Assembly (NCBI RefSeq): GCF_005869855.1
Contig: NZ_SZNH01000007.1
Coordinates: 120,418-178,446, forward strand
Reading direction: 5' to 3'
Length of the DNA: 58,029 nucleotides
DNA from: Nostoc sp. PA-18-2419
GTDB taxonomy: Bacteria; Cyanobacteriota; Cyanobacteriia; Cyanobacteriales; Nostocaceae
Part shown: positions 3,446 through 58,029 of the stretch, in pieces
How the letters are laid out: every line of letters starts with the position of its first letter
Position numbering within the stretch: the first letter of the stretch is position 1
Position numbers and translations under genes: made by a program
The notes under the pieces: model-generated
What the model saw: the letters and a program-made list of their open reading frames with translations, nothing else
What the model was told of the DNA's origin: nothing
Database searches by the model: none

Positions 3446-4621
3446 ATGCAGGGAAATTTAAGTGAAATTGATATTTGCAGTATCTTGCAATTAATTGAGT
3501 TGGGACAGCGAACTGGGCAATTATGGGTAGAAGCTCATAGTTACCGTAACAACAAACCTAGTGGAACTATAGTTAGTGAATATACCCTAAAACAACAGTC
3601 TTGGTTCGTTTTTTTCCTCAATGGTCAAATTATCTATTGCCAACAAGGGGAAAGTAGCTTATCCAGGATTAGCGATTATTTACGTCATTACCGAGTTGAG
3701 ATGCAACTTGCCGATAAACAAATTGCCTCCTTATCATCAACCGACGCCCCGGAGTATGCGTATCTTTGGGCACTCTTAGAGCAAAACATCATCAACCCCA
3801 AGATAGCTGCTAGTATTATCTACAACTTGGTGCATGAAACCCTGTTTGACCTACTGAGTTTACACCAAGGTAATTTCATTTTCCGTCAAGGTGCGGCACT
3901 TGCTCCCCAATTACATACTTTGGAAATTACTTACTTTGTAATAAAAATTACTAAAGAATTACAGGAGTGGAAGCAACTTTATCCACACATTCAGTCTCCC
4001 GAACAATTGCCAGTGCTATCTAACAAACTTCAGATAGAGTCGTCGCTACCAGCTGCAACCGTCAATAAACTACAACATTGGGCTGATGGTAAAACATCCC
4101 TGCGTCAACTAGCTCGTTATCTCAACCGAGACATTTTGACAGTCGCTAAGGCAATATATCCATACGTCCAACAGAGTTGGCTACAACTAGTATATTCAAC
4201 GACAAATAAACCAGATACTCACACTGATAACTGGGAATTGAAGAGAAAAAGCAGGGGGCAGATAGTATGTATTGACGATGCGATCGCCATCGGTGAGACT
4301 GTAAATTCCATCTTACAAGCACAAGGTTATGAAGCGATCGTTCTCACCAATCCCCTAGAGGCACTTAGTCTAATTTTTCAACTCAAACCCGATTTAATTT
4401 TATGTGATATAGCCATGTCCCAATTGGAAGGGTACGAGGTTTGCGCCATGCTGCGACACTCAACAGCATTTCGGTTCACACCGATTATCATGCTTACTGG
4501 TAAAGATGGATTTATTGATCGAGTCAAAGCTAGCATGGTTGGCGCAACAGATTATTTAACAAAACCATTTACAGACACTGAATTACTCATCCTTGTAGGG
4601 AAGTATATCAATAACCAATGA
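3446..4621 (+). CDS. hmpA: HmpA, PatA-family response regulator
   Basis: First gene of the hmp chemotaxis-like cluster. The 391-residue protein has an N-terminal PATAN/DUF4388-type domain (about 1-130, beginning MQGNLSEIDICSILQLIE), a middle helical region, and a C-terminal receiver domain (about 268-391). The receiver shows the acidic pair in VCIDDA, a phospho-acceptor Asp at about residue 321 (LCDIAMS) and the conserved Lys in LTKPF. PatA-type regulators are typical of cyanobacterial pilus/phototaxis systems. The next gene starts 256 bp later, so hmpB may also have its own promoter. Confidence 0.87.
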   Translation: MQGNLSEIDICSILQLIELGQRTGQLWVEAHSYRNNKPSGTIVSEYTLKQQSWFVFFLNGQIIYCQQGESSLSRISDYLRHYRVEMQLADKQIASLSSTDAPEYAYLWALLEQNIINPKIAASIIYNLVHETLFDLLSLHQGNFIFRQGAALAPQLHTLEITYFVIKITKELQEWKQLYPHIQSPEQLPVLSNKLQIESSLPAATVNKLQHWADGKTSLRQLARYLNRDILTVAKAIYPYVQQSWLQLVYSTTNKPDTHTDNWELKRKSRGQIVCIDDAIAIGETVNSILQAQGYEAIVLTNPLEALSLIFQLKPDLILCDIAMSQLEGYEVCAMLRHSTAFRFTPIIMLTGKDGFIDRVKASMVGATDYLTKPFTDTELLILVGKYINNQ

Positions 4622-4832
4622 AAAAAGGCATGGGGCATGGGCCAATTGATTATTTCTCCCTTGTCTTCTCAGTCTATGGGGTATATAAAAATCTAAGACT
4701 TGTGGATCTACGAAAAGATGAGGTAAAAGATGTTATCACAGAATGAATCAACTCAGTGAAATATCAATATACAGGAAATTAGTGAAAAACTAAATTTAAT
4801 TTATACAGTTGATACTTAAGGGGGAATCAGGG

Positions 4833-4853
4833 AATGTTCCAAATAGGAACGTT
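4833..4853. promoter_or_regulatory. Inverted repeat upstream of hmpB
   Basis: AATGTTCC, 5-nt spacer AAATA, GGAACGTT: an 8-bp dyad with one G-T mismatch, 24 bp before the hmpB start and just upstream of a strong AGGAGG ribosome site. It could be an operator or a small mRNA hairpin. Role is inferred. Confidence 0.35.
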
Positions 4854-4877
4854 ACATCAGGAGGTAGATAGACACTT

Positions 4878-5243
4878 ATGAGTACAGTTCTGATTGTAGA
4901 AGACAGTATCGCGCAAAGGGAGATGATTACAGACCTCCTGAAAGCAACTGGATTAACGGTCACCCATGCCAGTGACGGATTAGAAGCATTAGAGGCAATT
5001 CAAATAGCACCCCCCGATTTAGTGGTATTGGATATTGTTATGCCCCGGATGAACGGCTACGAAGTTTGTCGGCGGTTAAAATCCGATCCAAAAACCCAAA
5101 ATGTTCCTGTAGTTATGTGTTCTTCCAAAGGCGAAGAATTTGATCGCTACTGGGGTATGAGGCAGGGTGCAGACGCTTACATAGCTAAACCCTTTCAACC
5201 AACTGAGTTGGTAGGTACAGTCAAACAACTGCTGCGAAGATAA
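4878..5243 (+). CDS. hmpB: HmpB, CheY-like response regulator
   Basis: A stand-alone receiver domain of 121 residues that should accept phosphate from the CheA homologue HmpE and act on the pilus motors. It shows the acidic pair in LIVEDS, the phospho-acceptor Asp at about residue 52 (VVLDIVMPRMNGYEVC), the switch Ser in CSSKG and the Lys in IAKPF. The start is supported by AGGAGG shortly upstream. hmpC follows after 13 bp, so the two are co-transcribed. Confidence 0.9.
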   Translation: MSTVLIVEDSIAQREMITDLLKATGLTVTHASDGLEALEAIQIAPPDLVVLDIVMPRMNGYEVCRRLKSDPKTQNVPVVMCSSKGEEFDRYWGMRQGADAYIAKPFQPTELVGTVKQLLRR

Positions 5244-5256
5244 GGATAAAAGCAAT

Positions 5257-5787
5257 ATGGTCAGCAAACCGGACTTTTTAAGTGGCAGTGGTCAAGATCA
5301 TTTTCGACCAGAATTACAAGTAGAAAGTCCTGAAGGTGAGTTACATTTGAGGTTTTACATTCCCTCGCATCAGGAGTTTGCACTACAAGCAACTGGCATC
5401 CGGGAAGTAATTGAATTAAGTCCTGATAGAATCACCCCGATTCCTAATGCTTCTCCTTTACTTTTGGGTACTCTAAATTTACGAGGTCGAGTGATTTGGG
5501 TAGCTGATTTGGGGCAATTTTTAGGCGAACCAAGTGCATTAAACACAAATAAAGCTGAAATTCCGGTGATTGCCATTGAAGAACAAGACACAATAGTAGG
5601 TTTAGCAGTAGAGGAAATTGGTGGTATGGACTGGCTAGATGTCCAAAATCTCATTCCACCGACTAGTGTTCCAGATACTATGGCTCCTTTTTTACGTGGA
5701 GAGTGGGTATTAGGTGCTAAAACTAATCAGTGTCTAAGACTGCTTGATCAAATAGCAATTTTACGGAGTGCGCGGTGGGCAGGATGA
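5257..5787 (+). CDS. hmpC: HmpC, CheW-like coupling protein
   Basis: A 176-residue CheW-domain protein that should link the chemoreceptor HmpD to the kinase HmpE. The CheW fold covers about residues 25-170, with the characteristic stretches [36 protein letters not shown] and [11 protein letters not shown]. The first 25 residues are polar and probably flexible. It lies between hmpB (13 bp before) and hmpD (start 14 bp after its stop if the ATG at 5802 is used). Confidence 0.88.
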
Positions 5788-5801
5788 AATTGGAGGAGGA
5801 A

Positions 5802-8720
5802 ATGGCAGCAAGTATTGATGATTACCAGCCAACATATCAGCAGGCGATGACCGCCTATGTTCAGAGAAATTACGATGTTGCCGCCACTTTAGTTGACCAA
5901 GTGGTGCAAACTTTACCAAATGACCCGAACTCCCATTTGTTAAGGGGGCACATCTACTACGTTTTGCAGCAGTACGATGTCGCAAAACAAGAATATCAAC
6001 AGGTATTACACTTGACTAATGACCCAGAAATTATTGGTTTTGCTAATAATGGAATTGAAAATATAAATCAATACCTAGAGTCATTTGGTGGTCAGGTTGA
6101 TACATCCACAAGCCAAAAGCAAATAAATTCCCTAGATATATCTGATGCGCTGACATATGGCAAAGAAGAATTGGCTGCTAATGAGGAATTTGACAGCACA
6201 AACTTGGATTTGAACTTTTTTGAAGATAATTCTTCAAGTGAAAAACTATCTTCAAATAATCCTTTTGATATACCTACACAAGACAATGTTAGTACAGAAA
6301 AAACATCAGATTCTGCTACAATCTTTGGCGAAGATCCTTTTGCTTTAAATGAAGAATTAGAGGACCCAGAGTCGAATAGCAGCAGTGGGGAGGAAAAAAC
6401 AGAATTAGAGTTACCTGCTTTCTGGCAAGAAGATACCTCGGAAGAAAGCCTAGAAGAATCATTAGTGAATAGTCATTTTACAGATAATGAAGTAAATTCT
6501 ACTAACGAAAATTCAGCTATTAACAATCATAATTTTTTATCTTCTAATTCACAAACTGGTAATACTAAAAATAATTTTACTGATTTTTTTAGTGAGTCAC
6601 AATCTGAAAATTATAGTGCTGGAAGTTTAGAGAATAAGCAGCTTAATTTTGAAGATGAAACTTTACTGATTGTTGAAAAAGAACTAAGCAATCAGTCTCC
6701 AACCAAAGACTTAGGATATAACACTCAAGAGAATTTGTCACCAACCAAACCTAAGAATTGGTTAGAACAAAAAGATTTGGATGCAGACTCAGAATTTCAA
6801 CCAAATTTTTCTGATGATATATCTTTTGACAAAAATTTAATTTTGGACAAAAAGCAGTTTAAATCAGTTGAGTTATTAGAGCAAAATAACTTTGATGACG
6901 ATGAAAGTTTTGATATAGAAGCATTTGAGTCTGCCTTTGGATCAGATAACATCACTTCTGATGAAGACTTAAGCAATGTACTGAGTCGAGAAAATTCTAA
7001 GAGCAATATAGAATTTTTAGATGACTTTGAAGAATTTGATGATTTAGGTAATATTCCAGGGTTTGACTTAATCGAAGGAGATGCTGATTTTGCTGATGTG
7101 GCAATGCATTCTGCCGTAGCAGAAACTACTGGTACTGGACGCCCTCAAATTGTGGAGGCTTTTATAAGTAATGCAGCAGATCGCGAAGAGGAACTATTTA
7201 CAATTACTGGTTCACACGAACCAGTTCCAGTTTTTACTCATCAAACAGATGCCTCGAAGCTAGAACCGAATGTCAGCGTTGAGCAAGGCTGGTTAGCACC
7301 ATTAGAAAATGCCCCCATACAAAGAAAGCAATGGCTAATTGCTGGGACTGTGGGTATTGCCTCGGCACTGGTTGTAGCCGCAGTCAGCTTTGTCGCCACC
7401 ACATTTTCTCCACCTCAACAAAGGGAAAGTGTGCGAAACACAGGTTGGGCAATGGCACTAGCAGCCGGACTGACCGGTTTTACTACCGCAGGGTTGATGG
7501 GGAATCTCACACTCAAGCAAATTCGCCGCACAACCAAGGATTTGCAAACTCAGTTTGAGGCTGTACGTCAAGGAAACTTGAATGCTCAAGCCACAGTGTA
7601 TTCCGAAGATGAATTGGGGCACTTAGCTAGTGGCTTTAATGAAATGGCGCGAGTAATTTTCACGACCACAAATGAAGCCCAACGCAAAGCCGATGAACAA
7701 GAGGAAGCTAAGGAAAATCTCCAACGTCAGGTAATTCGCTTGTTGGATGATGTGGAAGGAGCTGCCAGAGGTGATTTAACAGTCCAAGCTGAAGTCACAG
7801 CCGACGTACTAGGAGCCGTAGCCGACGCCTTTAACCTGACAATTCAAAACCTGCGGGATATTGTCCAACAGGTAAAAGTGGCAGCTAAGGAAGTAACCAA
7901 AGGTGCAACTAACTCGGAAACTTTTGCTAGAGCCTTATCTAGTGATGCTTTACGCCAAGCAGAAGAGTTGGCAGTCACGCTGAATTCTGTACAGGTGATG
8001 ACCGACTCGATTCAACGGGTAGCAGAGGCGGCGCGGGAAGCCGAAACTGTCGCCCGCGATGCGAGTACGATCGCTCTCAAAGGTGGCGAAGCAGTAGAAA
8101 ATACTGTGGCGGGGATTTTAGAAATTCGCGAAACCGTTGCCGAAACAACTCGAAAAGTGAAGCGGCTGGCGGAATCTTCCCAAGAAATTTCTAAAATTGT
8201 GGCGTTGATTTCTCAGATTGCTTCCAGAACTAACTTGCTGGCACTCAACGCCAGTATTGAGGCGGCAAGGGCAGGAGAAGCTGGACGCGGCTTTGCAATT
8301 GTCGCTGATGAAGTGCGCCAGTTAGCAGACAAATCTGCCAAATCTTTGAAGGAAATTGAACAAATTGTCATGCAAATCCAAAGCGAAACAGGCTCCGTAA
8401 TGACCGCGATGGAAGAAGGTACGCAACAAGTAATTAAAGGCACAAAATTGGCAGAAGAAGCCAAGCGATCGCTCGAAAACATCATTCAAGTGGCAAATCG
8501 GATTGATATTCTAGTGCGTTCTATCACTACCGATACTGTGGAACAAACGGAAACCTCCCGCGCCGTTGCTCACGTAATGCAATCAGTAGAACTCACAGCC
8601 CAAGAAACTTCCCAAGAAGCACAGCGAGTTTCCGGTGCCCTACAACACCTAGTAGGTGTATCTCGTGACTTGATCGCTTCTGTGGAACGTTTCCGAGTGG
8701 AAACCCTTGAAACTAGATAA
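5802..8720 (+). CDS. hmpD: HmpD, methyl-accepting chemotaxis protein
   Basis: Receptor of the Hmp array, counterpart of cyanobacterial PilJ. I place the start at ATG 5802, giving [10 protein letters not shown] and a GGAGG site 5 nt upstream; an in-frame GTG at 5775 overlaps hmpC and an ATG at 5784 is also possible. From the N terminus: TPR-like helices (about 1-95), a long acidic Ser/Asn/Asp-rich linker (about 110-460), two hydrophobic segments near 509-532 and 548-570 with only a short loop between, a HAMP domain, then an MCP signalling domain with the hairpin tip near 800-850 ([18 protein letters not shown]). There is no periplasmic ligand domain, so it probably senses inside the cell or through partners. 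hmpE follows after a repeat-filled gap. Confidence 0.88.
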
Positions 8721-8753
8721 ATTGTCATTAGTCATTTGTCCTTTGTTATCTGC

Positions 8754-8809
8754 CAATGACCAATGACCAATGACCAATGACCAATGATTAATGATTAATG
8801 ACTAATGAC
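8754..8809. repeat. Heptanucleotide tandem repeat (STRR) between hmpD and hmpE
   Basis: Eight consecutive 7-bp units, CAATGAC x4, CAATGAT, TAATGAT, TAATGAC x2. Short tandemly repeated repetitive sequences of this kind are typical of Nostoc and Anabaena. It ends 16 bp before the hmpE start codon, leaving little room for a normal ribosome site. Confidence 0.85.
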
Positions 8810-8825
8810 TCTTGACTAAAAAACT

Positions 8826-11800
8826 ATGCTGCCGGAACAACAACAGCGGATTTTAGGTTACTTTATCGAAGAAGCCAGAGACCACCTAAATACTATAGAG
8901 CAGGGGTTGCTGAATCTAGAGAGTACCCTCAACGACCCGGAAATGATTAGCGAAGTCTTCCGGGCGGCTCACTCTATCAAAGGAGGAGCGGCAATGCTTG
9001 GATTGACAAGTATCCAGCATACATCGCACCGTCTGGAAGATTGTTTCAAAGTTCTTAAAGAACATCCGGTTCAGATTGACCAAAAGTTAGAGTCTTTATT
9101 CTTAGGTGTCTCTGATACCCTCAAAGCACTGTTAGAGCATTTGAGTGCGCCATTTGGTCTTTCTGAAGAGACAGCTAATACACTGATGTCAGAAACCGAG
9201 CCTGTCTTTCAGTGGCTAAATGAGCATCTAGAACAACTTGTACAACAAGGAAACAGTGGAGTAACCACTCCCTGTGCAACAGAAGTGACTGGTTCTATAG
9301 AGAATGTCTCCACACTCACAGAACTTTTTCTACGGCGAGATATTCCCAGTTTGGCAGAAGACGCCCATCAGGAATCTATAGAAAAAGATATTTCTGTAGT
9401 ACCTCAGGAGGTGTTATCGTCAGCCAACGCCAAAGAAAATCAAAATTGGAGCGAGTTTCAAGCCCAAGTACTACAAATACTGCGGCAAATGTTGCAACTG
9501 TTTAAGCAAACAACAACATCTTCAACTCGCCAAAACCTCGAGGAATGCTGTTACCAGTTGGTCAAACTTGGGTTAACTTGGAATTTATCCAAGTGGTGCG
9601 GTTTGTGTGAAGCGGCAGCCAGTGCGATCACCAATCCTCAAAACACTTATCTAACTTTAGCTAAAATCGTCATCACCGAAATCAAGCAAGCTCAAGAATT
9701 AGTTTTGCAAGATAGGGAAGCAGAAATTGCAATCAGTCAACAACTAGAAGCACTTTTGAACTTTGCAGAAATTGAGTTGTTAGAAATTCCCTTTAATTTA
9801 GTTGACGAACAGTCTCCACCAAAGCCAATTTCTCAAAAAATTGAAGAAACCGAACACTTAGCCATCACTAACTTATCTGAGCCAATTGAAGAATTTAAGC
9901 TAGACGACGATATCAATGAATACCCATCTTTAGAGTTACAACAAATATCACTAAACGCTACACCTGTAACTAACTTCACTCTTATTCCACATGAGGAAGT
10001 GCATCCAATCAGTAAGAATCTTGACCCCAATGGCCCAGAGGTAGGAATAGCTGAGTTAAATACCTTGGCTGATTTATTTGAAGGTGAAACTCCTGACTTA
10101 GATGAAAATTGGCAACAAGAAGAAACTTTAGATATTACTGTTACTAATGAATTAGGAATTGATTTCAGCAGCAGTGAAACTAACGATAGCGATTTATCAG
10201 ATTTACTTTCATTCGATGAAGATACTGATAACGAGCAGCAAACCACAATCACAGCTAATACAGAAGATTTATCTTTATTATTTGGTGAGAACTTTATAGA
10301 AAAAGAAAATTATGATCTGCAAAATCAACAAACATCTCCTCTGACTAAAGAGTTAAATGATATCACTATAGATAACCTAGATTTCGACTCTTTTTCTGCC
10401 GAAATATATCAAATTTCTGACAGTTTTATTAACACAGAGCAGCCCTCTTTAGATATTGACCAAAAGAATGACAACGAAAACGATGTGCTTGCAGATTTGT
10501 TGGCACTGACACTAGATGATGACAATGAACTTTTAATTACAGGCGAAATAACTGAACCAGAAAATGAGGCGTCAGCCAGTATAAAATTATCTAGCAATCA
10601 AGAAAATAGTCTTGATAACTTATTTTTAGAAACTGAAAATAGAAATTGGGTAGAAGAAATTACCTCTAGTGATTATATAGAATTAACTCAGCCAAAAGAC
10701 TTGTCTTTAGACAACTTATTTGGTGATGATATAGAAGAAAATTCACTACTAGCCACAAGTGATTCAAAACTTAGTGATTTATTTGATATATCTCTGGAAA
10801 CAACAACTGAACTTTCTCAACCAGAAGATGATTTTAGTAACTTCTGGAATCAAGAAACTACAGGAAAACCAGAAAATGAATTCGATTCTATAGTTGAAAA
10901 TAATTTACAAAATACATTAGAAAAAGATTTATTCATTGGAATTGATAATGATATTTTTACTGAAAGTCAAGAGTCTATAGCTTCTTATGACAACAGTTTT
11001 GATCTAGACAATTTTAATTTAAATTTTCCAGAAGATGAGCAATTAGATATATTATCATCTGATTATGGAGATGATTTATTTGAGGATTTAGCACCAAAAA
11101 ATTTGACAATTTATCCTGAAATTAGCCAGAGCGAAGCTTTAACCAGTCTTGAAGGGTCATCAGCTACATTAGAAGATTCAGTTCCATTGTTCGGGCAACA
11201 TCCTGTAAAAGAGGAAATTCATAATTTATCCCAACAGCCAGAAACTGTAGATTTTATTCCAGAATTTACTAATCAACCCTCAGAGATATCTACTGTTGAT
11301 TATTCTCAAACATCTTCTGATGTCGAACTTAATTCCTTTAGTTCTTTTGATAAAAATTTACAATTACTGTTTGAGGATGTAGCCATTCATGACTCCACCT
11401 ACATTCAGATGGAGATTACAGATGATGTGGTGGACGAACTATCGACTCCAGAAACTTTAGAATTAGCCCAAGCACAGTCAGGTGATTTGTTCGGCTCTTT
11501 TGATGAGAATATACAACTGCTGTTTGAGGATGTAACCATTCATGACTCCACCTACATTCAGATGGAGATTACAAATGATGTGGTGGACGAACTATCGACT
11601 CCAGAAGCTTTAGAATTAGCCCAAACACAGTCAGGTGATTTGTTCGGTTATTTTGATGAGAATACACAACTGTTGTTTGAGGATGTAGCTATTCATGACT
11701 CCACCTATATTCAGATGGAGATTACAGATGATGTACTGGATGAACTATCGACTCCAGAAACTTCCACTTCATTGCAAAGAAATCTAGAAGTTTTAAATAC

Positions 11801-14336
11801 TGAAAATTATAGTTTAGAAGCGGCTTTAGAGTTTGCAGATAATGCAGCTTTGGAAAGTACAGAGCTAAGTTTAAAAAATAATTTATTGCTGAGAGAAACT
11901 CCTTTATTAGAAGTAGAAGTAAATAGCATAGTCGAAGAATTATCAACTGTAAATGAATTTGCACAAACGATTATTCAAGTAACTGTAGAAATAGATAAAA
12001 ACTTAGACAAAAATTTAGTAACTGCACCACTACCAACGTTAGAAAATGCTGTTGGCGTAACTGAAGAATCGACAGTCACAGAAATTATTGAAGTAGTTAC
12101 TCTAGAAGATGACTTTGCAAACTTAGAAGCATTACTAAAAGAGGAAGTACCACCTGCTAAAGCTAAGGAGATACCAGAAGTAGATTTTGCTGCTCTAGAA
12201 GAATTGCTAGGTACGGATAACAATCAAGCTGCTGTATCTAGTGCCCAGCCATCAACTCAATCAATCTCAGCCAAAAATGCTGCTTTCTCACCACGCATAG
12301 ATGAATTTAGCGACTTGGAAAAGTTGCTGGCAGAAGCGGATCAAACAATATCACACTCGGCACTGACAAAATCGAATACGAATAAAACTCCACGTCCCTC
12401 TAGTCGTCGTGCTGCGAGATTTGAAGAAACAATGAAGGTTCCAGTGAAGCAACTGGACGATATGAGTAATTTAGTTGGCGAGTTGGTGGTAAATCGCAAC
12501 ACCTTAGAGCAGGATCACGAACGGCTGCGACAATCACTAGATAACTTGCTGATTCAGGTACAACAACTCTCGGATGTGGGAGCAAGGATGCAAGAGTTGT
12601 ACGAGCGATCGCTCTTAGAAGCTTCTCTGTTGGCTGGACGCAAAGCCAAAGACTCTGGCTTCGATTCCCAAGACTCTAATTCTGACAGAGGTTTTAGCGA
12701 GCTAGAAATGGATCGCTTTACTCCTTTCCATACATTGTCCCAGCAAATGATTGAGCGCATTGTACGGGTACGTGAGTCGGCTAGTGACATTGATTTTGTC
12801 ACCGAAGAAACTGAACGAGTAGCACGGCAATTTCGTCAAGTAACCACCCAGCTGCAAGAGGGACTAACAAGAGCGCGAATGGTCCCTTTTGCCCAAACTA
12901 TTGATCGCTGGCGGCGGGGTGTACGTGACAATGCCATTAAGTGTGGCAAACAAGTAGAGTTGGTAATTGAAGGTGGCGATACTTTAATTGACAAGATGAT
13001 TTTGGATCATCTTACCGATCCGCTAACACACATGCTCAATAATGCGATCGCTCACGGTATTGAAACGCCAGAACAAAGGCAAGCTGCTGGTAAGCCACCT
13101 GTGGGAATTATTACTATCCGTGCCTTTCACCAAGGTAACCAGACTGTAATTTCTGTGGGCGATGACGGCGCAGGTATCGATCCGGCAGGCGTTAAGGCTA
13201 AGGCAGTCAAAATTGGTATGATTACGGAAGCCCAGGCAAAAACTATCTCTCGCCTAGAAGTCTACGACTTACTATTCCACTCTGGTTTTAGCATCAAAGA
13301 CCAAGCAGACGAAATTTCTGGTCGCGGCGTAGGTATGGATGTAGTGCGATCGGCAATTAGCGAAATTCGGGGCACAGTAAACACTGATTCTGCAATTGGC
13401 AAAGGAACCACTTTCACCATTCGTTTGCCACTGACTTTGAGTATTTGTAAAGCTCTGTGTTGTGTCTCCGATAGAGCCAGAATTGCCTTCCCAATGGACG
13501 GCGTAGAAGATACCCTCGATATCTCAGTCAAAAATATTCAACATAACGCCAATGGGCAATCATTTATATCTTGGCGCGATACTCTGCTGCCATTCCGACC
13601 TTTGAAGGAACTTTTAACCTTTAATCGTCAAATTACTCGCGGTAATGTGTATGGCGGTAACCGAGATGATGATATGGTTTCTGTGGTTGTGGTGCGATCG
13701 GCAAATACTCTAATTGCCTTACAGATTGACTTGGTGTTAAGCGAACAAGAAATTGTAATTAAGCAATTTGAAGGCCCGGCACCTAAACCTATAGGTGTAG
13801 CAGGTGCTACAGTTCTCGGTGATGGTCGGATTATGCCCATCGCTGACGTGCTAGAAATTATTGACATCTTCCAAGGACGAATTTCTACACAAGTTGGTAG
13901 CAGTTCTTGGCAACAAAAAACTACTCCTACAGACACTCCCGCTACTAAGATTGACCCAACAGTGCTAATTGTCGATGACTCAATTACAGTCCGAGAATTG
14001 CTCTCTCTAACATTCAGCAAGGCAGGTTATCGTGTAGAACAGGCGCGTGACGGTCAGGAAGCTTGGGATAAACTCCGCTCCGGTTTGCCTTGCGATATCG
14101 TTTTTTGCGACATCGAAATGCCCCGTTGCGATGGTCTGGAGTTACTCTCTCGCATCCAGAAAGACTCTAACCTCAACCACCTACCGATCGCAATGCTCAC
14201 CTCACGAGGTGCAGACAAGCACAGACAAATGGCAGTTCAACTCGGTGCAAGTGGCTACTTTACCAAGCCTTATCTCGAAGAAGCGCTATTGGAAGCTGCG
14301 GGGCGGATGGTCAAAGGAGAGAAACTTGTTAGCTAA
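8826..14336 (+). CDS. hmpE: HmpE, CheA-like histidine kinase with C-terminal receiver
   Basis: Hybrid CheA of 1836 residues, central kinase of the Hmp system. Order: Hpt domain at about 1-110 with His49 in AAHSIKGGAAMLG; a very long acidic Asn/Ser/Thr-rich linker (about 320-1190); dimerisation helices beginning near 1198 (KQLDDMSNLVGELVVNRNT); a HATPase domain with the N-box near 1387 (LTHMLNNAIAHGIE), G1 near 1444 (VGDDGAGID) and G2 near 1499 (GRGVGMDVV); a CheW-like domain at about 1538-1680; and a receiver from about 1706 with phospho-acceptor Asp1762 (FCDIEMPRCDG). The linker contains three near-identical 51-residue repeats. A terminator-like hairpin lies 180 bp after the stop. Together with HmpA-D and HmpF it controls hormogonium motility. 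Confidence 0.9.
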   Translation: MLPEQQQRILGYFIEEARDHLNTIEQGLLNLESTLNDPEMISEVFRAAHSIKGGAAMLGLTSIQHTSHRLEDCFKVLKEHPVQIDQKLESLFLGVSDTLKALLEHLSAPFGLSEETANTLMSETEPVFQWLNEHLEQLVQQGNSGVTTPCATEVTGSIENVSTLTELFLRRDIPSLAEDAHQESIEKDISVVPQEVLSSANAKENQNWSEFQAQVLQILRQMLQLFKQTTTSSTRQNLEECCYQLVKLGLTWNLSKWCGLCEAAASAITNPQNTYLTLAKIVITEIKQAQELVLQDREAEIAISQQLEALLNFAEIELLEIPFNLVDEQSPPKPISQKIEETEHLAITNLSEPIEEFKLDDDINEYPSLELQQISLNATPVTNFTLIPHEEVHPISKNLDPNGPEVGIAELNTLADLFEGETPDLDENWQQEETLDITVTNELGIDFSSSETNDSDLSDLLSFDEDTDNEQQTTITANTEDLSLLFGENFIEKENYDLQNQQTSPLTKELNDITIDNLDFDSFSAEIYQISDSFINTEQPSLDIDQKNDNENDVLADLLALTLDDDNELLITGEITEPENEASASIKLSSNQENSLDNLFLETENRNWVEEITSSDYIELTQPKDLSLDNLFGDDIEENSLLATSDSKLSDLFDISLETTTELSQPEDDFSNFWNQETTGKPENEFDSIVENNLQNTLEKDLFIGIDNDIFTESQESIASYDNSFDLDNFNLNFPEDEQLDILSSDYGDDLFEDLAPKNLTIYPEISQSEALTSLEGSSATLEDSVPLFGQHPVKEEIHNLSQQPETVDFIPEFTNQPSEISTVDYSQTSSDVELNSFSSFDKNLQLLFEDVAIHDSTYIQMEITDDVVDELSTPETLELAQAQSGDLFGSFDENIQLLFEDVTIHDSTYIQMEITNDVVDELSTPEALELAQTQSGDLFGYFDENTQLLFEDVAIHDSTYIQMEITDDVLDELSTPETSTSLQRNLEVLNTENYSLEAALEFADNAALESTELSLKNNLLLRETPLLEVEVNSIVEELSTVNEFAQTIIQVTVEIDKNLDKNLVTAPLPTLENAVGVTEESTVTEIIEVVTLEDDFANLEALLKEEVPPAKAKEIPEVDFAALEELLGTDNNQAAVSSAQPSTQSISAKNAAFSPRIDEFSDLEKLLAEADQTISHSALTKSNTNKTPRPSSRRAARFEETMKVPVKQLDDMSNLVGELVVNRNTLEQDHERLRQSLDNLLIQVQQLSDVGARMQELYERSLLEASLLAGRKAKDSGFDSQDSNSDRGFSELEMDRFTPFHTLSQQMIERIVRVRESASDIDFVTEETERVARQFRQVTTQLQEGLTRARMVPFAQTIDRWRRGVRDNAIKCGKQVELVIEGGDTLIDKMILDHLTDPLTHMLNNAIAHGIETPEQRQAAGKPPVGIITIRAFHQGNQTVISVGDDGAGIDPAGVKAKAVKIGMITEAQAKTISRLEVYDLLFHSGFSIKDQADEISGRGVGMDVVRSAISEIRGTVNTDSAIGKGTTFTIRLPLTLSICKALCCVSDRARIAFPMDGVEDTLDISVKNIQHNANGQSFISWRDTLLPFRPLKELLTFNRQITRGNVYGGNRDDDMVSVVVVRSANTLIALQIDLVLSEQEIVIKQFEGPAPKPIGVAGATVLGDGRIMPIADVLEIIDIFQGRISTQVGSSSWQQKTTPTDTPATKIDPTVLIVDDSITVRELLSLTFSKAGYRVEQARDGQEAWDKLRSGLPCDIVFCDIEMPRCDGLELLSRIQKDSNLNHLPIAMLTSRGADKHRQMAVQLGASGYFTKPYLEEALLEAAGRMVKGEKLVS
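11343..11762 (+). repeat. Tandem 153-bp (51-residue) repeats within hmpE
   Basis: Units begin at 11343, 11496 and 11649, each exactly 153 bp apart, the third ending near 11762. Each encodes FD-N-QLLFEDV-IHDSTYIQMEIT-DV-DELSTPE and a spacer ending in SGDLFG. Very few base differences indicate recent duplication. They sit in the acidic linker between the Hpt and kinase core. Confidence 0.92.
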
Positions 14337-50269: not shown

Positions 50270-50400
50270 GATTGCTTCTCTACGAAACGCTCTTGCTAGC
50301 TTGCTTCCACGTTGCGTAGCGTCCCGCAGGGAAGTGGTGCATTTCACTTAGCTACACTCGCTTCCGACATATCACAAGTAATTTCCCACACATGATATTA
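50270..50400. repeat. Composite dispersed repeat
   Basis: Contains a GC-rich hairpin-type repeat (CCACGTTGCGTAGCGTCCCGCAGGGAAGTGG region, about 50308-50338) and, at 50352-50400, a sequence ending CACATGATATTA closely related to the ends of the element at 20998-21153. Confidence 0.55.
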
Positions 50401-50585
50401 AAAATGCAAGCCGAGGCATTAACAATGCAAGCCGAGGCATTAACAATGCGAGTCGATGCATTAACAATGCGAGCCAATGCATTAACAATGTAAGCCGATG
50501 CATTAACAATGCGAGCCAATGCATTAACAATGCGAGCCGATGCATTAACAATGCAGGTCGATGTATTAAAATTGCACGTTAATAC
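50397..50585 (+). repeat. 21-bp minisatellite, nine units
   Basis: Nine units of 21 bp, consensus ATTAACAATGCGAGCCGATGC, last unit diverged, no unique spacers. In the frame from ATG 50392 each unit codes a heptapeptide of type LTMRADA, with changes such as MQAEALT, MRVDALT and MRANALT. A TAA at 50491-50493 (unit five) breaks this frame, which would otherwise run to 50595. Confidence 0.92.
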
Positions 50586-52969: not shown

Positions 52970-54631
52970 ATGAACAAACTCACTCGGTCAATTTTAGATT
53001 TAAGGTGGCAGCAAAGATGCACTCACAGGACAACTTCGATTTTGCAGTTCACTAAAAAACTATCTCTGACATTCCATCGCCTGCTTATTAGCTTGTTGGC
53101 TTTGCTCGTGTTTAACTGGGGATTGCAGCCAGAAATTGCTCTGGCTCAAACTCAAACAATATCTCCTCCAGCCAAAACTCAAATGCCAGCTGCAAGTTCG
53201 ATTCAACCTTATCTAGATCGAGTCATCGATCAGTTAACTGAGTTTCGCCTAGAGAATAATTTAAAATTTATTGTTTTAGAACGACATCAAGCACCTGTAG
53301 TTTCTTTTCTGACTTATGCTGATGTCGGTGGTGTGGATGAGCCTGATGGCAAAACTGGTGTAGCTCACTTTCTAGAACATTTGGCGTTTAAAGGGACGAC
53401 GCGCATCGGTACAGAAGATTACAAAGCAGAAAAACCGCTACTCGAACGCTTGGAACAGTTGGATGCCCAAATAAGAGCAGCAAAAGCTAATGCTAAAAAA
53501 GATGAAGTAGTACGGTTAGAAGCTGAGTTTAAGCAAGTAGAATCCCAAGCCGGTAAATTAGTCAAGCAAAACGAACTAGGGCGAATTGTCGAACAAGCCG
53601 GAGGTGTGGGTTTAAATGCTACTACTTCAACTGAAGCTACCCGTTACTTTTACAGCTTTCCTGCTAATAAGTTGGAACTTTGGATGTCACTGGAGTCGGA
53701 GCGATTTCTCGACCCTGTAATTCGTCGTGAGTTTTATAAAGAAAAAGATGTGATTTTAGAGGAGCGACGGATGCGGGTGGATAATTCACCCATTGGCTTG
53801 ATGTTGGAAAAATTTACTGACGCTGCTTACAAGGTTCATCCTTACAGGCGTCCAGTGATTGGTTATGACAAAGATATCCGTAACTTAACCCCAGAAGATG
53901 TACAAAAGTTTTTCGATGCTTATTATGTACCAAGTAATTTAGCGATCGCCATTGTTGGAGATGTCAATCCCGCCCAGGTGAAACAACTGGCACAAGTTTA
54001 TTTTGGACGCTATCGAGCCAAAGCTAAAGCTACTGAACAAATCCCCGTGGAACCGCGACAACAACAAACACGGGAAGTTTCTTTAGAACTACCTGCTCAA
54101 CCTTTATATTTAGAAGGTTATCACCGTCCCTCAGTTACTCATCCAGATAATGTAGTCTATGAAATCATTGGCAGTTTATTAAGCGATGGGCGCACGTCGC
54201 GACTGTATAAGTCTTTGGTAGAAAAGCAGCGTTTGGCGCTCAATGCTCAAGGTTTCAGTGGTTTTCCTGGAGATAAATATTCAAATTTAATGTTGTTTTA
54301 CGCTCTGACTGCTCCCGGTCACACGCTTGATGAGTTGGCGGTGGCTTTGCGTCAGGAAATTGACAAATTAAAAACTCAGCCTGTAGCAGCGGTTGAATTG
54401 GAACGGGTGAAAACCCAAGCACGGGCAGATTTATTACGCACCCTGACTTCTAATACCGGAATGGCTCAACAATTGTTGGAATTTGAAGTCAAAACTGGCT
54501 CTTGGCGGAATTTGTTTAAGCAGTTGGATGAAATTGCGGCGGTAACTCCTGATGATATTCAGCGGGTAGCAAAGACGACGTTTACGCCGGAAAATCGCAC
54601 AATTGGTAAGCTGTTGTCAAAACAAGGATAA
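52970..54631 (+). CDS. M16 zinc peptidase, active subunit, exported
   Basis: 553 residues. A long N-terminal signal/anchor region (hydrophobic near 40-62, LLISLLALLVFNWGL) places it outside the cytoplasm. Zinc motif HFLEH at 133-137 (GVAHFLEHLAFKGTT), with the downstream Glu in DVILEERRMR. A charged helical insertion (about 155-205, LEQLDAQIRAAKANAKKDE) lies between. The next gene codes the inactive partner, 6 bp downstream; the two should form a heterodimer. Confidence 0.92.
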   Translation: MNKLTRSILDLRWQQRCTHRTTSILQFTKKLSLTFHRLLISLLALLVFNWGLQPEIALAQTQTISPPAKTQMPAASSIQPYLDRVIDQLTEFRLENNLKFIVLERHQAPVVSFLTYADVGGVDEPDGKTGVAHFLEHLAFKGTTRIGTEDYKAEKPLLERLEQLDAQIRAAKANAKKDEVVRLEAEFKQVESQAGKLVKQNELGRIVEQAGGVGLNATTSTEATRYFYSFPANKLELWMSLESERFLDPVIRREFYKEKDVILEERRMRVDNSPIGLMLEKFTDAAYKVHPYRRPVIGYDKDIRNLTPEDVQKFFDAYYVPSNLAIAIVGDVNPAQVKQLAQVYFGRYRAKAKATEQIPVEPRQQQTREVSLELPAQPLYLEGYHRPSVTHPDNVVYEIIGSLLSDGRTSRLYKSLVEKQRLALNAQGFSGFPGDKYSNLMLFYALTAPGHTLDELAVALRQEIDKLKTQPVAAVELERVKTQARADLLRTLTSNTGMAQQLLEFEVKTGSWRNLFKQLDEIAAVTPDDIQRVAKTTFTPENRTIGKLLSKQG

Positions 54632-54637
54632 GGCAAT

Positions 54638-56182
54638 ATGGTAAGAAAGTCTTTTGCTGGCATAAATCTCAAATTTCGCTTCAGAACAATTCAAAATCTC
54701 AGATCACAAATTCCAAATGGCAAGAGGCTTATTTATGCGTTGGTTGGGGCTTTTGCTTTTTTACTTTTAACTTTTAACTTTTCTGTGGCGGCGACAGTAG
54801 AGGCGAAGCATTACACAGAGTTACAGCTACCACCGCTACCTGAGATTAAGATACCTAAGTATGAGCGGTTTGTGCTGCAAAACGGCATGGTTGTCTATTT
54901 GATGGAGGATCGCGAGTTACCCTTGGTGAAGGGTACGGCGTTGGTCAGGACTGGGAATCGTTTGGAACCCTTGGAAAAAGTCGGTTTGGCTGGTTTTACA
55001 GGCGCGGTGATGCGGACTGGCGGAACTACGAAGCATTCGCCCGATGAACTCAATGAGATATTAGAACAACGGGCGGCGTCGGTGGAAACTAGTATTAGTG
55101 AAACAGCCGGTAGTGGAAGTTTTGATGCGCTCAGTGAAGATTTAGAAACGGTGTTTGGGCTATTTGCTGAAGTATTGCGATCGCCTGTATTTGCTCAAGA
55201 AAAGCTAGATTTGGCAAAAACCCAAGCTAGAGGTAGTATTGCGCGACGCAATGACGACCCAAGTGGAATTGCTAGTCGAGAATTTCGCAAGTTGCTGTAT
55301 GGCAAAGATAGCCCTTATGGTCGCACCACAGAGTATGCAACGGTAGACCGAATTGAGCGTGAGGATTTGCTCAAGTTTTATCAGCAGTATTTTTACCCGA
55401 ATAATATGATTTTGGGGATTGTGGGGGATTTCGACGCCAAGAAAATGCGATCGCTCGTTCAAGCTAAATTTGGCGACTGGAAGCCAAACCCTAAAATTGC
55501 CAAACCCCAATTACCAGAGGTTTCGCCAGCTAATAGTGGCGGAGTGTTTTTTGTCAATCAGCCGCAACTCACGCAAAGTAGTGTGTTGCTCGGACATTTA
55601 GGCGGACAGCTCGACAGTCCAGATTATCCAGCGTTGAGTGTATTGAACGATGTGTTGAATGGGTTTGGCGGACGCTTATTTAATGAAGTGCGATCGCGCC
55701 AAGGTATAGCTTATTCTGTATACGGCGTTTGGAGTCCCCGTTACGATTATCCGGGAATGTTCATTGCTGGTGGACAAACGCGATCGGATGCTACTGTGCA
55801 GTTTGTCGTCGCTTTACAAGCGGAAATTAAGCGCATCCAAGCTCAAACAGTCACACCAAAGGAACTAGCTTTTGCCAAAGAATCTACCCTCAACTCCTTT
55901 GTATTCAACTTCCAAGACCCCGGTCAAACCTTATCACGGTTGATGCAATACGAATATTACGGCTATCCGGCTGATTTCCTCTTTCGCTATCAAAAAGCTG
56001 TCGCCGCCACTACAGCCGCCGATGTGCAACGGGTAGCACGAAAATACCTCAAGCCAGAAAATATCGTGACTTTAGTGGTGGGAAATCAAACTGCCATTCA
56101 ACCGCCTTTGACACAGCTAGCTGCACAGGTAACACCAATAGATGTCACAATTCCTAACTCACAACCACAAGTCAAAAATTAA
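54638..56182 (+). CDS. M16 family protein, inactive partner subunit
   Basis: 514 residues. Hydrophobic N-terminal segment (LIYALVGAFAFLLLTFNFSV), then two M16 domains. At the place of HxxEH it reads GFTGAVMRTGGT, so no zinc site. The C-terminal R/Y motif is present (NEVRSRQGIAYSVYG). It completes the substrate chamber for the active subunit encoded just upstream. Confidence 0.92.
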   Translation: MVRKSFAGINLKFRFRTIQNLRSQIPNGKRLIYALVGAFAFLLLTFNFSVAATVEAKHYTELQLPPLPEIKIPKYERFVLQNGMVVYLMEDRELPLVKGTALVRTGNRLEPLEKVGLAGFTGAVMRTGGTTKHSPDELNEILEQRAASVETSISETAGSGSFDALSEDLETVFGLFAEVLRSPVFAQEKLDLAKTQARGSIARRNDDPSGIASREFRKLLYGKDSPYGRTTEYATVDRIEREDLLKFYQQYFYPNNMILGIVGDFDAKKMRSLVQAKFGDWKPNPKIAKPQLPEVSPANSGGVFFVNQPQLTQSSVLLGHLGGQLDSPDYPALSVLNDVLNGFGGRLFNEVRSRQGIAYSVYGVWSPRYDYPGMFIAGGQTRSDATVQFVVALQAEIKRIQAQTVTPKELAFAKESTLNSFVFNFQDPGQTLSRLMQYEYYGYPADFLFRYQKAVAATTAADVQRVARKYLKPENIVTLVVGNQTAIQPPLTQLAAQVTPIDVTIPNSQPQVKN

Positions 56183-56448: not shown

Positions 56449-56676
56449 ATGACGAGAATAATAATATCAAACCTACAAGTTCCTAATAGTGAAGAGAATC
56501 TGCTCACTGAACTAACCATTTGGCAAATGAGAAGTGTAGAGGGCGGAATCAGAAGAATAACCAAGGAAGATAATTCCGGAATGCTTTCATCAGAGAATAT
56601 AAAACAGACTGTTAGTGATTGGTTAGCTAACATAGATAAACAGATCGTAGATCTGCGAAATCAGCTTAGTGTTTAA
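56449..56676 (+). CDS. Small peptide with double-glycine-type leader
   Basis: 75 residues, preceded by AGGAGG 8 nt before the ATG. The N-terminal 33 residues (ISNLQVPNSEENLLTELT, IWQMRSVEGG) follow the pattern of leaders cut after Gly-Gly by peptidase-containing ABC exporters: an acidic amphipathic helix with hydrophobic spacing, ending EGG at 31-33. The remaining 42 residues are polar and Cys-free. A perfect-palindrome terminator follows, so it is a one-gene transcript. No exporter is in the window. Assignment is from the leader pattern only. Confidence 0.6.
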   Translation: MTRIIISNLQVPNSEENLLTELTIWQMRSVEGGIRRITKEDNSGMLSSENIKQTVSDWLANIDKQIVDLRNQLSV

Positions 56677-56711: not shown

Positions 56712-56750
56712 AAAAACCTGCGCTCTTAATTAAGAGCGCAGGTTTTTTAT
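56712..56750. terminator. Perfect-palindrome bidirectional terminator
   Basis: AAAAACCTGCGCTCTTAA and its exact complement form a 36-bp perfect palindrome (56712-56747) flanked by A and T runs, so it can terminate in either direction. It closes the 56449 gene. Confidence 0.9.
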
Positions 56751-57039: not shown

Positions 57040-57300
57040 ATGGCAAATATCGCTCTTTCTCAACTAAATACCACTGGTTCTGAACTGTTTCAAGATTCTG
57101 AAAGCTTCCTCAACGACCTCAACAATGTAGATTCCATCACGATTTATGGTGGTGGTAGTGATGTTTCTAATGTTGCCGAAGGTCTAGACCCACTTTTAGC
57201 TTACGGTGTTAAGGGACAAGAGTTCGGATTGTTAGCCTTTGGCGCTAGCTTGACTGCACACATCGTCAAGTCATTCAGCGACGCAACTAATTATTTCTAA
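57040..57300 (+). CDS. Secreted-peptide precursor, array copy 1
   Basis: 86 residues, AGGAGA ribosome site. Leader-like half 1-38 (LFQDSESFLNDLNNVDSITIYGG) resembles double-glycine leaders with an acidic amphipathic helix; the putative core 39-86 is Gly/Ala/hydrophobic (LLAYG, GLLAFGASLTAHIVKSFS) with no Cys and ends in an aromatic residue (NYF). Likely a bacteriocin-like or signalling peptide; the exact class is unknown. First of three tandem copies. Confidence 0.65.
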   Translation: MANIALSQLNTTGSELFQDSESFLNDLNNVDSITIYGGGSDVSNVAEGLDPLLAYGVKGQEFGLLAFGASLTAHIVKSFSDATNYF

Positions 57301-57344
57301 AGTACTACTGAGCTAGATTGCTCTGTGGGACTTTTGCAATTAGC

Positions 57345-57368
57345 GATTAAGCAATACACAGCTTGATC
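57345..57368. promoter_or_regulatory. Conserved hairpin upstream of peptide copy 2
   Basis: GATTAAGC, AATACACA, GCTTGATC: 8-bp stem with one T-G pair, 46 bp before the start. The outermost pair is G-C here but A-T in copy 1. Confidence 0.65.
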
Positions 57369-57414
57369 GCAGCAAAATTCTACTCAACTGTGACAATTAT
57401 CTGAGGAGAAAATT

Positions 57415-57675
57415 ATGGCAAGTATCGCTCTTTCTCAACTAAATACCACTGGTTCTGAACTGTTCCAAGATTCTGAAAGCTTTCTCAACGACCTCAACAA
57501 TGTAGATTCCATCACAATTTATGGTGGTGGTAGTGATGTTTCTAGTGTTGCCGAAGGTCTAGACCCACTTTTAGCTTACGGCATTAAGGGACAAGAGTTC
57601 GGATTGTTAGCCTTTGGCGCTAGCTTGACTGCACACATCGTCAAGTCATTCAGCGACGCAACTAATTATTACTAA
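57415..57675 (+). CDS. Secreted-peptide precursor, array copy 2
   Basis: 86 residues, differing from copy 1 at N3S, N44S, V57I and F86Y. GAGGAGA ribosome site at the same distance. The preceding and following spacers are nearly identical to each other, so each copy brings its own control sequence. Confidence 0.65.
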   Translation: MASIALSQLNTTGSELFQDSESFLNDLNNVDSITIYGGGSDVSSVAEGLDPLLAYGIKGQEFGLLAFGASLTAHIVKSFSDATNYY

Positions 57676-57719
57676 ACTACTACTGAGCTAGATTGCTCTG
57701 TGGGACTTTTGCAATTAGC

Positions 57720-57743
57720 GATTAAGCAATACACAGCTTAATC
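57720..57743. promoter_or_regulatory. Conserved hairpin upstream of peptide copy 3
   Basis: GATTAAGC, AATACACA, GCTTAATC: perfect 8-bp stem, 46 bp before the start. Confidence 0.68.
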
Positions 57744-57789
57744 GCAGCAAAATTTTACTCAACTGTGACAATTATCTGAGGAGAAAATT

Positions 57790-58029
57790 ATGGCAAGTAT
57801 CGCTCTTTCTCAACTAAATACTACTGGTTCTGAACTGTTTCAAGATTCTGAAAGCTTTCTCAACGACCTCAACAATGTAGATTCCATCACGATTTATGGT
57901 GGTGGTAGTGATGTTTCTAGTGTTGCCGATGGTCTAGGCCCACTTTTAGCTTACGGCATTAAGGGACAAGAGTTCGGATTGTTAGCCTTTGGCGCTAGCT
58001 TGACTGCACACATCGTCAAGTCATTCAGC
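57790..58029 (+). CDS. Secreted-peptide precursor, array copy 3 (3' end outside window)
   Basis: The visible 80 codons match copy 2 except E47D and D50G, both in the putative core; the other base changes from copy 2 are silent. The gene runs off the window, so the array may continue. Confidence 0.65.
   Translation, partial: MASIALSQLNTTGSELFQDSESFLNDLNNVDSITIYGGGSDVSSVADGLGPLLAYGIKGQEFGLLAFGASLTAHIVKSFS

What the first reader, a model, noticed from the sequence alone, without database searches (positions are those of the whole stretch)
57040..58029. Tandem array of near-identical double-glycine-leader peptide genes, core varying faster than leader
Three 86-residue genes repeat at exactly 375 bp. 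By eye, copy 1 to copy 2 and copy 2 to copy 3 changes in codons 1-38 are six silent and one amino-acid altering, while in codons 39-86 one is silent and five alter the protein (N44S, E47D, D50G, V57I, F86Y). That is the pattern of a fixed export leader with a diversifying product. The core has no Cys and no known modification motif, so it does not fit lanthipeptides or cyanobactins as I know them. Numbers are small.
Basis: partly seen in the sequence, partly recalled or inferred. Interest (0 to 1): 0.8.

Follow-up and report, generated by a model that had tools for sequence, protein, structure and literature searches.

The report
Cysteine-free modified-peptide gene array
A Nostoc-family cyanobacterium carries five near-identical genes in a row for a small, probably exported peptide, next to enzymes related to those that build sulphur-bridged antibiotics, although this peptide has no cysteine with which to form such bridges.

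Summary
The array runs past the window: five 86-aa copies (alpha) and a diverged companion (beta), then an APH-like kinase (LanK type), a HopA1-like lyase (LanY type), a HetP-like gene, PpiC, HlyD and a CAP_ED-C39 ABC exporter. This is a "group II" cyanobacterial bacteriocin-type cluster (Wang 2011) of the LanK/LanY RiPP kind. The leader reading is supported: the same leader precedes unrelated cores elsewhere in this genome and in other families.

"Diversifying product" is not supported. Over 34 arrays the core body (51-80) is as constrained as the leader (pN/pS 0.17 versus 0.22); only the post-GG linker and last six residues vary. K58, E61, S78 and S80 are identical in 164 of 164 copies (45 loci).

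184 of 186 alpha/beta cores lack Cys, so they cannot form lanthionine, the defining bond of class V lanthipeptides. The lyase's catalytic Lys is kept in 70 of 70 loci with a leader-bearing precursor and lost in 12 of 13 without.

Best reading: a Ser/Thr-dehydrated, GG-cleaved, exported helical peptide with partners gamma and beta; role unknown. Against it: the exporter is not local in over half of array loci. Side finding: the cluster's HTH protein ends in a leader-like IxIxDL motif.

The parts
57040..57300 (+). alpha precursor copy 1, 86 aa (leader 1-38 ending GG, core 39-86)
57415..57675 (+). alpha precursor copy 2, 86 aa
57790..58029 (+). alpha precursor copy 3, cut by the window end; copies 4, 5, beta, LanK, LanY, HetP-like, PpiC, HlyD, C39 ABC and HTH genes follow in L013 (window position = L013 position + 55582)
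56449..56676 (+). gamma peptide gene, 75 aa, leader-like IIISNL start and GG; homologue in 44 of 45 array loci
56712..56747 (+). perfect hairpin with a T-rich end after gamma, likely terminator
   Evidence: -24.7 kcal/mol, z -7.9; the consensus scan did not list it
57343..57370 (+). inter-copy hairpin, 45-72 nt before the ATG of copy 2
   Evidence: -15.5 kcal/mol, z -5.8
57718..57745 (+). inter-copy hairpin GCGATTAAGC/GCTTAATCGC before copy 3
   Evidence: -15.4 kcal/mol, z -8.0; same stem in other genera
52970..54631 (+). M16 peptidase-family gene 1, part of the group II neighbourhood
   Evidence: PF05193 6e-30, PF00675 9e-17
54638..56182 (+). M16 peptidase-family gene 2
   Evidence: PF05193 4.5e-39, PF00675 8e-7

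Best explanation
The array encodes precursors of a ribosomally made, modified and exported peptide. Shown by sequence: leader (1-38, GG), Cys-free conserved core, and (in this genome) an adjacent kinase, lyase and C39 exporter with their catalytic residues. Inferred: the LanK-like kinase phosphorylates core Ser/Thr (S78 and S80 are the best candidates), the LanY-like lyase eliminates phosphate to leave dehydroalanine, and with no Cys no lanthionine ring forms. The C39 domain then cuts after GG and the ABC/HlyD machine exports a mainly helical peptide of about 48 residues. Multiple copies raise the dose; gamma (one) and beta (one) are partner peptides exported by the same route. The role outside the cell is not shown. 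I lean slightly to a self-directed role (matrix or signal, as for EbfG) over a killing role, because the cores examined are neutral to acidic and I recognised no immunity gene among the annotated neighbours (no dedicated search was made).
For: Operon: in 45 of 45 array loci all alpha copies lie on the same strand upstream of kinase-lyase; 40 of 40 loci chosen only by the alpha peptide hold both enzymes. Kinase: PF01636 5.3e-6, NCBIfam LxmK 3.6e-17 but 62.5 bits against a cut-off of 315; K54, E71, H220, D222, N227 in 83 of 83. Lyase: PF17914 6.9e-61, LxmY-type crystal chain 9dk1_B E 7e-4; K232, R242 and Y249 have the spacing of CaoY K219, R229, Y236. The Lys is kept in 70 of 70 loci with a leader-bearing precursor and lost in 12 of 13 without. 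C39 Cys, His, Asp present in 42 of the 42 transporters with letters there (4 of 46 have a gap). Where no C39 domain lay in the fetched stretch of an alpha-chosen locus, 25 of 25 genomes hold one elsewhere. K58, E61, S78, S80 in 164 of 164 alpha copies. Model: helices 6-30 and 43-85, GG in the low-confidence hinge.
Against: No expression, mass or activity data. The kinase is far below the LxmK equivalog cut-off. Only 20 of 45 array loci (15 of 40 alpha-chosen) hold a C39 domain in the stretch fetched; in 22 of the 25 without, at least 8 kb beyond the lyase was held, so export there would mostly be in trans (for L050 a C39 lies just outside the stretch). S78/S80 invariance could reflect structure, not modification; alpha membership was set by a profile, which favours conserved positions. 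Most of the 12 lyases without Lys are one related type, so few evolutionary events. The model is weak (pLDDT 67.9, pTM 0.28).
Confidence: 0.66

Rival explanations
1. The peptides are unmodified GG-leader secreted proteins of the EbfG kind (matrix or signal); kinase and lyase serve other precursors.
For: Tandem GG proteins exported by a C39 transporter and needed for biofilm are known in Synechococcus elongatus (PMC4997328, passages read). The core is hydrophobic and neutral to acidic (net -3, -2, 0 in three alpha examples). Near-identical copies suggest dosage.
Against: Kinase and lyase follow the array in 45 of 45 loci, and the lyase's catalytic Lys tracks presence of leader-bearing precursors.
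Confidence: 0.18
2. It is a bacteriocin with core diversification driven by an arms race.
For: The window array alone shows pN near pS in the core (0.036 versus 0.035); linker and tail have pN/pS 0.49 and 0.73; similar clusters are called bacteriocins (PMC3140520).
Against: Core body pN/pS 0.17 (0.14-0.20) over 34 arrays and four invariant core residues. Pooled, both variable stretches are still below 1. I recognised no immunity gene.
Confidence: 0.14
3. Decaying or selfish tandem duplication without function.
For: Copies within an array are often each other's nearest relatives (120 of 153), as with recent duplication or gene conversion; two of the matches listed contain a stop.
Against: Purifying selection, conservation across 45 loci and a conserved gene order.
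Confidence: 0.02

Closest known systems
Group II cyanobacterial bacteriocin clusters (Wang, Fewer and Sivonen 2011, PMC3140520)
   Same: Long CAP_ED-C39 ABC transporter, HlyD, SurA/rotamase, M16 peptidase, HetP-like gene, several GG precursors
   Different: The main text does not contain the words HopA1, kinase, phosphotransferase or cysteine, and the parts read describe no gamma-alpha-beta order; its supplementary tables were not seen
Class V lanthipeptides (LanK/LanY; cacaoidin, lexapeptide; PMC9486802, PMC12291118)
   Same: Separate APH-like kinase and HopA1-like lyase next to a precursor; catalytic residues kept
   Different: 184 of 186 cores lack Cys; no LanC at the three precursor-bearing clusters of this genome; GG leader and C39 export. 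PMC9486802 collected only Cys-containing ORFs for its cyanobacterial 'type-B' precursors
EbfG1-4 of Synechococcus elongatus (PMC4997328)
   Same: Tandem small GG proteins, C39 exporter
   Different: No kinase/lyase pair is mentioned in the passages I read; sequences not compared here
CTB family bacteriocins (NF038167)
   Same: Tandem array of small genes near a C39 gene in the same genome (contig C60, 4 copies)
   Different: Alpha does not match the model

Membership tests
Group II cyanobacterial bacteriocin cluster | C39 ABC transporter with N-terminal CAP_ED/cNMP domain | tested here: met
   PF03412 2.3e-40, PF00027 1.9e-7 in one 1058-aa protein
Group II cyanobacterial bacteriocin cluster | HlyD and rotamase (SurA-like) genes | tested here: met
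Group II cyanobacterial bacteriocin cluster | M16 peptidase and HetP-like genes nearby | tested here: met
   two M16; HetP family 3.8e-25
Class V lanthipeptide | HopA1-like lyase LanY with catalytic Lys/Arg/Tyr | tested here: met
   residues mapped by spacing and the 9dk1_B alignment, not by a CaoY alignment
Class V lanthipeptide | APH-like kinase LanK | tested here: inconclusive
   PF01636 just over cut-off; LxmK model 62.5 bits against cut-off 315; kinase-type residues conserved
Class V lanthipeptide | Cys in the core for (methyl)lanthionine | tested here: not met
   184 of 186 alpha/beta cores Cys-free; five copies and beta in this genome Cys-free
Class Vb lanthipeptide | LanC cyclase in the cluster | tested here: not met
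   two LanC-domain matches in the genome at E <= 0.01, in 1124-1133 aa frames on other contigs
Class Va lanthipeptide | LanD decarboxylase and LanX | not tested
   no dedicated search
Class V lanthipeptide | lanthionine in the product | not testable with these tools
   needs mass spectrometry
CTB family (NF038167) | match to the model | tested here: not met
   the matches in this genome over the cut-off are on C60, none on the array
Two-peptide (class IIb) bacteriocin | two different peptides, cationic, with immunity gene | tested here: inconclusive
   alpha and beta present but alpha core net charge -3; no dedicated immunity-gene search; the defining features are recalled

The most novel reading that the evidence does not exclude
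A LanK/LanY peptide family in which dehydroalanines at the invariant S78/S80 are not captured by Cys but stay free or are captured by a conserved Lys (K77 nearby, or K58 of a neighbour), giving a lysinoalanine-stapled or cross-linked helix; made and exported as a three-peptide set (gamma, alpha, beta), with an HTH protein whose leader-like tail lets it compete with precursors for the same enzyme or exporter and so report precursor supply.
Probability: 0.14. Interest if true: 0.82.

Novelty: new variant of a known kind. Interest (0 to 1): 0.56.

Why it matters
The characterised LanK/LanY-type products I know of carry sulphur-based bonds (class V lanthipeptides in PMC9486802, kintamdin in the abstract of PMC9415263; the thioamitides from recall). 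A large conserved family that keeps the enzymes' catalytic residues while its peptides lack Cys would show that dehydration alone, or a non-sulphur cross-link, is a product class. A survey that requires Cys in the ORF, as in PMC9486802, would miss it. The leader-like tail on the cluster's own HTH protein, if real, is a testable feedback mechanism for peptide export.

Tried and rejected
Known-family look-up: alpha, gamma and beta of this genome match no Pfam or NCBIfam model, nor do one beta and one gamma relative in Pfam. Of 30 alpha members a few have single weak matches to unrelated models, best DUF6944 at E 0.0069 in 1 of 30, taken as chance. PDB look-up of alpha gave only KtrA at E 0.016 over 47 residues, taken as chance; the kinase found no PDB chain. 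CTB family: rejected. Lanthipeptide by membership: rejected because Cys is absent. Lysinoalanine between K58 and S78 within one helix: unlikely on the model, where they lie 20 residues apart in one helix; K77 remains. Promoter scan: 4 sites against a mean of 5.4 in shuffles. No fold search was run, because two plain helices at low confidence would match too much. A second structure job was not used. Literature searches for the kinase/HopA1 pair in cyanobacteria, HetP with C39 clusters, lysinoalanine and an HTH/leader link listed no paper that I recognised as describing the Cys-free family or the HTH tail; most listed papers were seen as title and start of abstract only.

Recount: an earlier tally of C39 genes by a full-length profile (23 of 40 alpha-chosen loci) counted other ABC proteins too; with the peptidase domain alone it is 15 of 40, and the latter is used. 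The HetP tally (22 of 45 against 1 of 38) holds at E <= 1e-5.

Rows dropped: of 275 leader-bearing ORFs, 14 with leader E over 0.2 were left out; of the 75 non-family ones, 5 with leader E of 1e-8 or more were not counted for Cys. The dN/dS set leaves out two family copies with ambiguous residues (copy 3 of this genome and one in L063) and the 11 single-copy loci. Of 102 HopA1 places listed, 40 were fetched; of 49 other genomes in the displayed match list, 40 were fetched.

Full report
What is there. The three copies are as described, and the by-eye count of changes is exact. The window ends inside the array. In the same contig (L013; window position = L013 position + 55582) copies 4 and 5 follow at 2584 and 2959, then beta at 3644 (70 aa, with YGSVDD where the others have GG), an APH-like kinase 3928-5127, a HopA1-like lyase 5269-6360 and a HetP-like gene 6400-6708. 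On the other strand follow PpiC 6777-7559, HlyD 8020-9567, a CAP_ED-C39 ABC transporter 9845-13021 and an HTH_32 protein 13107-13706. Upstream lie two M16 genes and gamma (56449-56676) with a strong terminator-like hairpin behind it.

Leader and core are separate modules. In the same genome the leader occurs at contig C102 (five precursors) and C84 (four) in front of unrelated cores, each beside its own kinase, lyase and C39 exporter. Over 388 genomes drawn from the class, 36 match the alpha profile at E <= 1e-8. The listed matches outside the window's family end at positions 39-74 of 81; those that run to 76 or beyond are in the family. Within the family 135 of 217 genomes match at E <= 1e-5, a threshold that leader-only matches can also pass. 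Named relatives are Nostoc, Anabaena, Trichormus, Cylindrospermum, Nodularia, Calothrix and kin.

The core is conserved, not diversifying. I fetched 40 loci by the alpha peptide and 40 by HopA1, 83 with three of this genome. A core profile gathers 186 alpha/beta members in 45 loci; 164 are alpha by leader and core score and have no ambiguous residue. Nei-Gojobori counts within 34 arrays give pN/pS 0.22 (0.17-0.27) for the leader and 0.32 (0.28-0.37) for the whole core; the core exceeded the leader in 99.8% of resamples, so it does evolve faster. By region: linker 39-50 0.49 (0.39-0.61), body 51-80 0.17 (0.14-0.20), tail 81-86 0.73 (0.52-0.99). In the ten closest arrays the tail has pN 0.203 over pS 0.158, so local positive selection on the tail is not excluded. 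K58, E61, S78 and S80 are identical in 164 of 164 copies; K77 in 156. Between loci mean entropy is 0.90 bits for the leader, 2.02 linker, 1.47 body, 2.90 tail: over long distances the body changes more than the leader. Copies of one array are often nearest to each other (120 of 153), so counts within arrays are not independent; intervals come from resampling loci.

The enzymes. Kinase and lyase are of the class V type. CaoK and CaoY were shown to phosphorylate and dehydrate a precursor (PMC9486802, abstract, passages and sections 6 and 7 read). The lyase here matches the lyase chain 9dk1_B (E 7e-4); 9DK3 is given as the lexapeptide kinase LxmK in a passage of PMC12291118, from which I take that chain to be LxmY. 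K232, R242 and Y249 have the spacing of CaoY K219, R229, Y236; this mapping is by spacing and by the 9dk1_B alignment, not by a CaoY alignment. The Lys is present in 71 of 83 loci. All 70 loci with a leader-bearing precursor (leader E below 1e-8) keep it; 12 of 13 without have lost it. That is the best sign that the lyase acts on these peptides. It rests on few lineages; the one that keeps it (L094) holds a beta and a gamma gene, and one that lost it (L123) holds a weak leader-like ORF.

The exporter. In this genome a C39 ABC gene and HlyD are in the cluster. With the peptidase domain as probe, 20 of 45 array loci hold one in the stretch fetched. For the 25 alpha-chosen loci without, 25 of 25 genomes hold a C39 gene elsewhere. 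Export by a distant C39 protein is therefore assumed, not shown, in more than half of the loci.

No Cys. 184 of 186 alpha/beta cores lack Cys; the two exceptions carry it near the C-terminus. Of 70 other leader-bearing precursors, from 25 of the 83 loci, 47 lack it as well. With no LanC at these clusters of this genome, lanthionine is excluded for alpha. Free dehydroalanine, a Lys adduct or an unmodified peptide remain.

A three-peptide set. Gamma (IxISxL-like start, GG or AG, usually an Arg-rich stretch, then a C-terminal segment) is found in 44 of 45 array loci; beta next to the kinase in 38 of 45. HetP-like genes go with array loci (22 of 45 against 1 of 38 others), M16 genes too (25 of 45 against 0 of 38), whereas an aldo/keto reductase goes with the other loci (0 of 45 against 16 of 38). 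Loci differ in how much flank was held, so absences are upper bounds.

HTH tail. HTH_32 proteins were found in 40 of 83 loci. Their last 48 residues carry [IVL]x[IV]x[DN]L in 33 of 40, and in 14 of 19 after thinning by similarity, against a mean of 0.2 and a maximum of 2 in 500 shuffles; in 457 other ORFs of the same loci the rate is 0.4%. Two of the five thinned misses (L015, L100) have it just before the last 48 residues. Precursors start with the same pattern loosely (259 of 275) but strictly in only 66 of 275. In this genome the HTH family has three close members, each at one of the three clusters with precursors, kinase, lyase and exporter, plus one weak match. Common descent of the tails is not excluded by the shuffle test.

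What is known. Group II clusters with C39, HlyD, SurA, M16 and HetP-like genes were described in 2011 (PMC3140520, three of five parts read and the main text searched), so the cluster type is not new. PMC9486802 reports cyanobacterial type-B precursors but collected only ORFs with Cys and Ser/Thr. My searches listed no paper that I recognised as describing the Cys-free family; subscription journals are largely outside that library.

Function. The core is hydrophobic and neutral to acidic in the examples computed and modelled as one helix at modest confidence. I recognised no immunity gene but made no dedicated search. A matrix or signal role like EbfG (PMC4997328, passages) and a bacteriocin role both stay open; I lean slightly to the former.

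Noticed in passing
L013:13107-13706, L014:15462-16052, L015:3132-3851 and 37 other loci: HTH_32 protein beside the C39 transporter ends in an IxIxDL motif like the precursor leaders (33 of 40 strict; shuffles near zero after thinning).
   Followed up: partly
L087, L091-L093, L095-L099, L101, L102: Stand-alone kinase/HopA1 pairs with no recognised precursor and no C39 domain in the stretch held; the lyase's catalytic Lys is replaced by Gln or Glu, suggesting a pseudo-lyase with another function.
   Followed up: partly
L014:5636-6649 and 15 other loci (e.g. L103, L110, L115): Aldo/keto reductase near kinase-lyase in loci with other cores (16 of 38), not found in alpha loci (0 of 45); possible dehydroalanine reductase.
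   Followed up: no
window 57343-57370, 57718-57745 and other genera: Hairpin GCGATTAAG...CTTAATCGC about 72 nt before the ATG of many array copies, stem kept while the loop varies; operator or processing site. Not found in several other loci examined.
   Followed up: partly
L017:9373-9651 (contig C89, outside the window): Leader-like GG peptide with a Cys/Tyr-rich repeated core (CGYANGCHDYGY...).
   Followed up: no
L016:9242-9415: Orphan leader-bearing peptide beside a gene that looks like an integrase by eye.
   Followed up: no
G000:C60:276474-277944: Four-copy CTB-family array, a second tandem small-peptide array, near a C39 gene.
   Followed up: no
window 50352-50551: Short in-frame repeats (RIVNAS-like) in a small ORF, by eye.
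   Followed up: no
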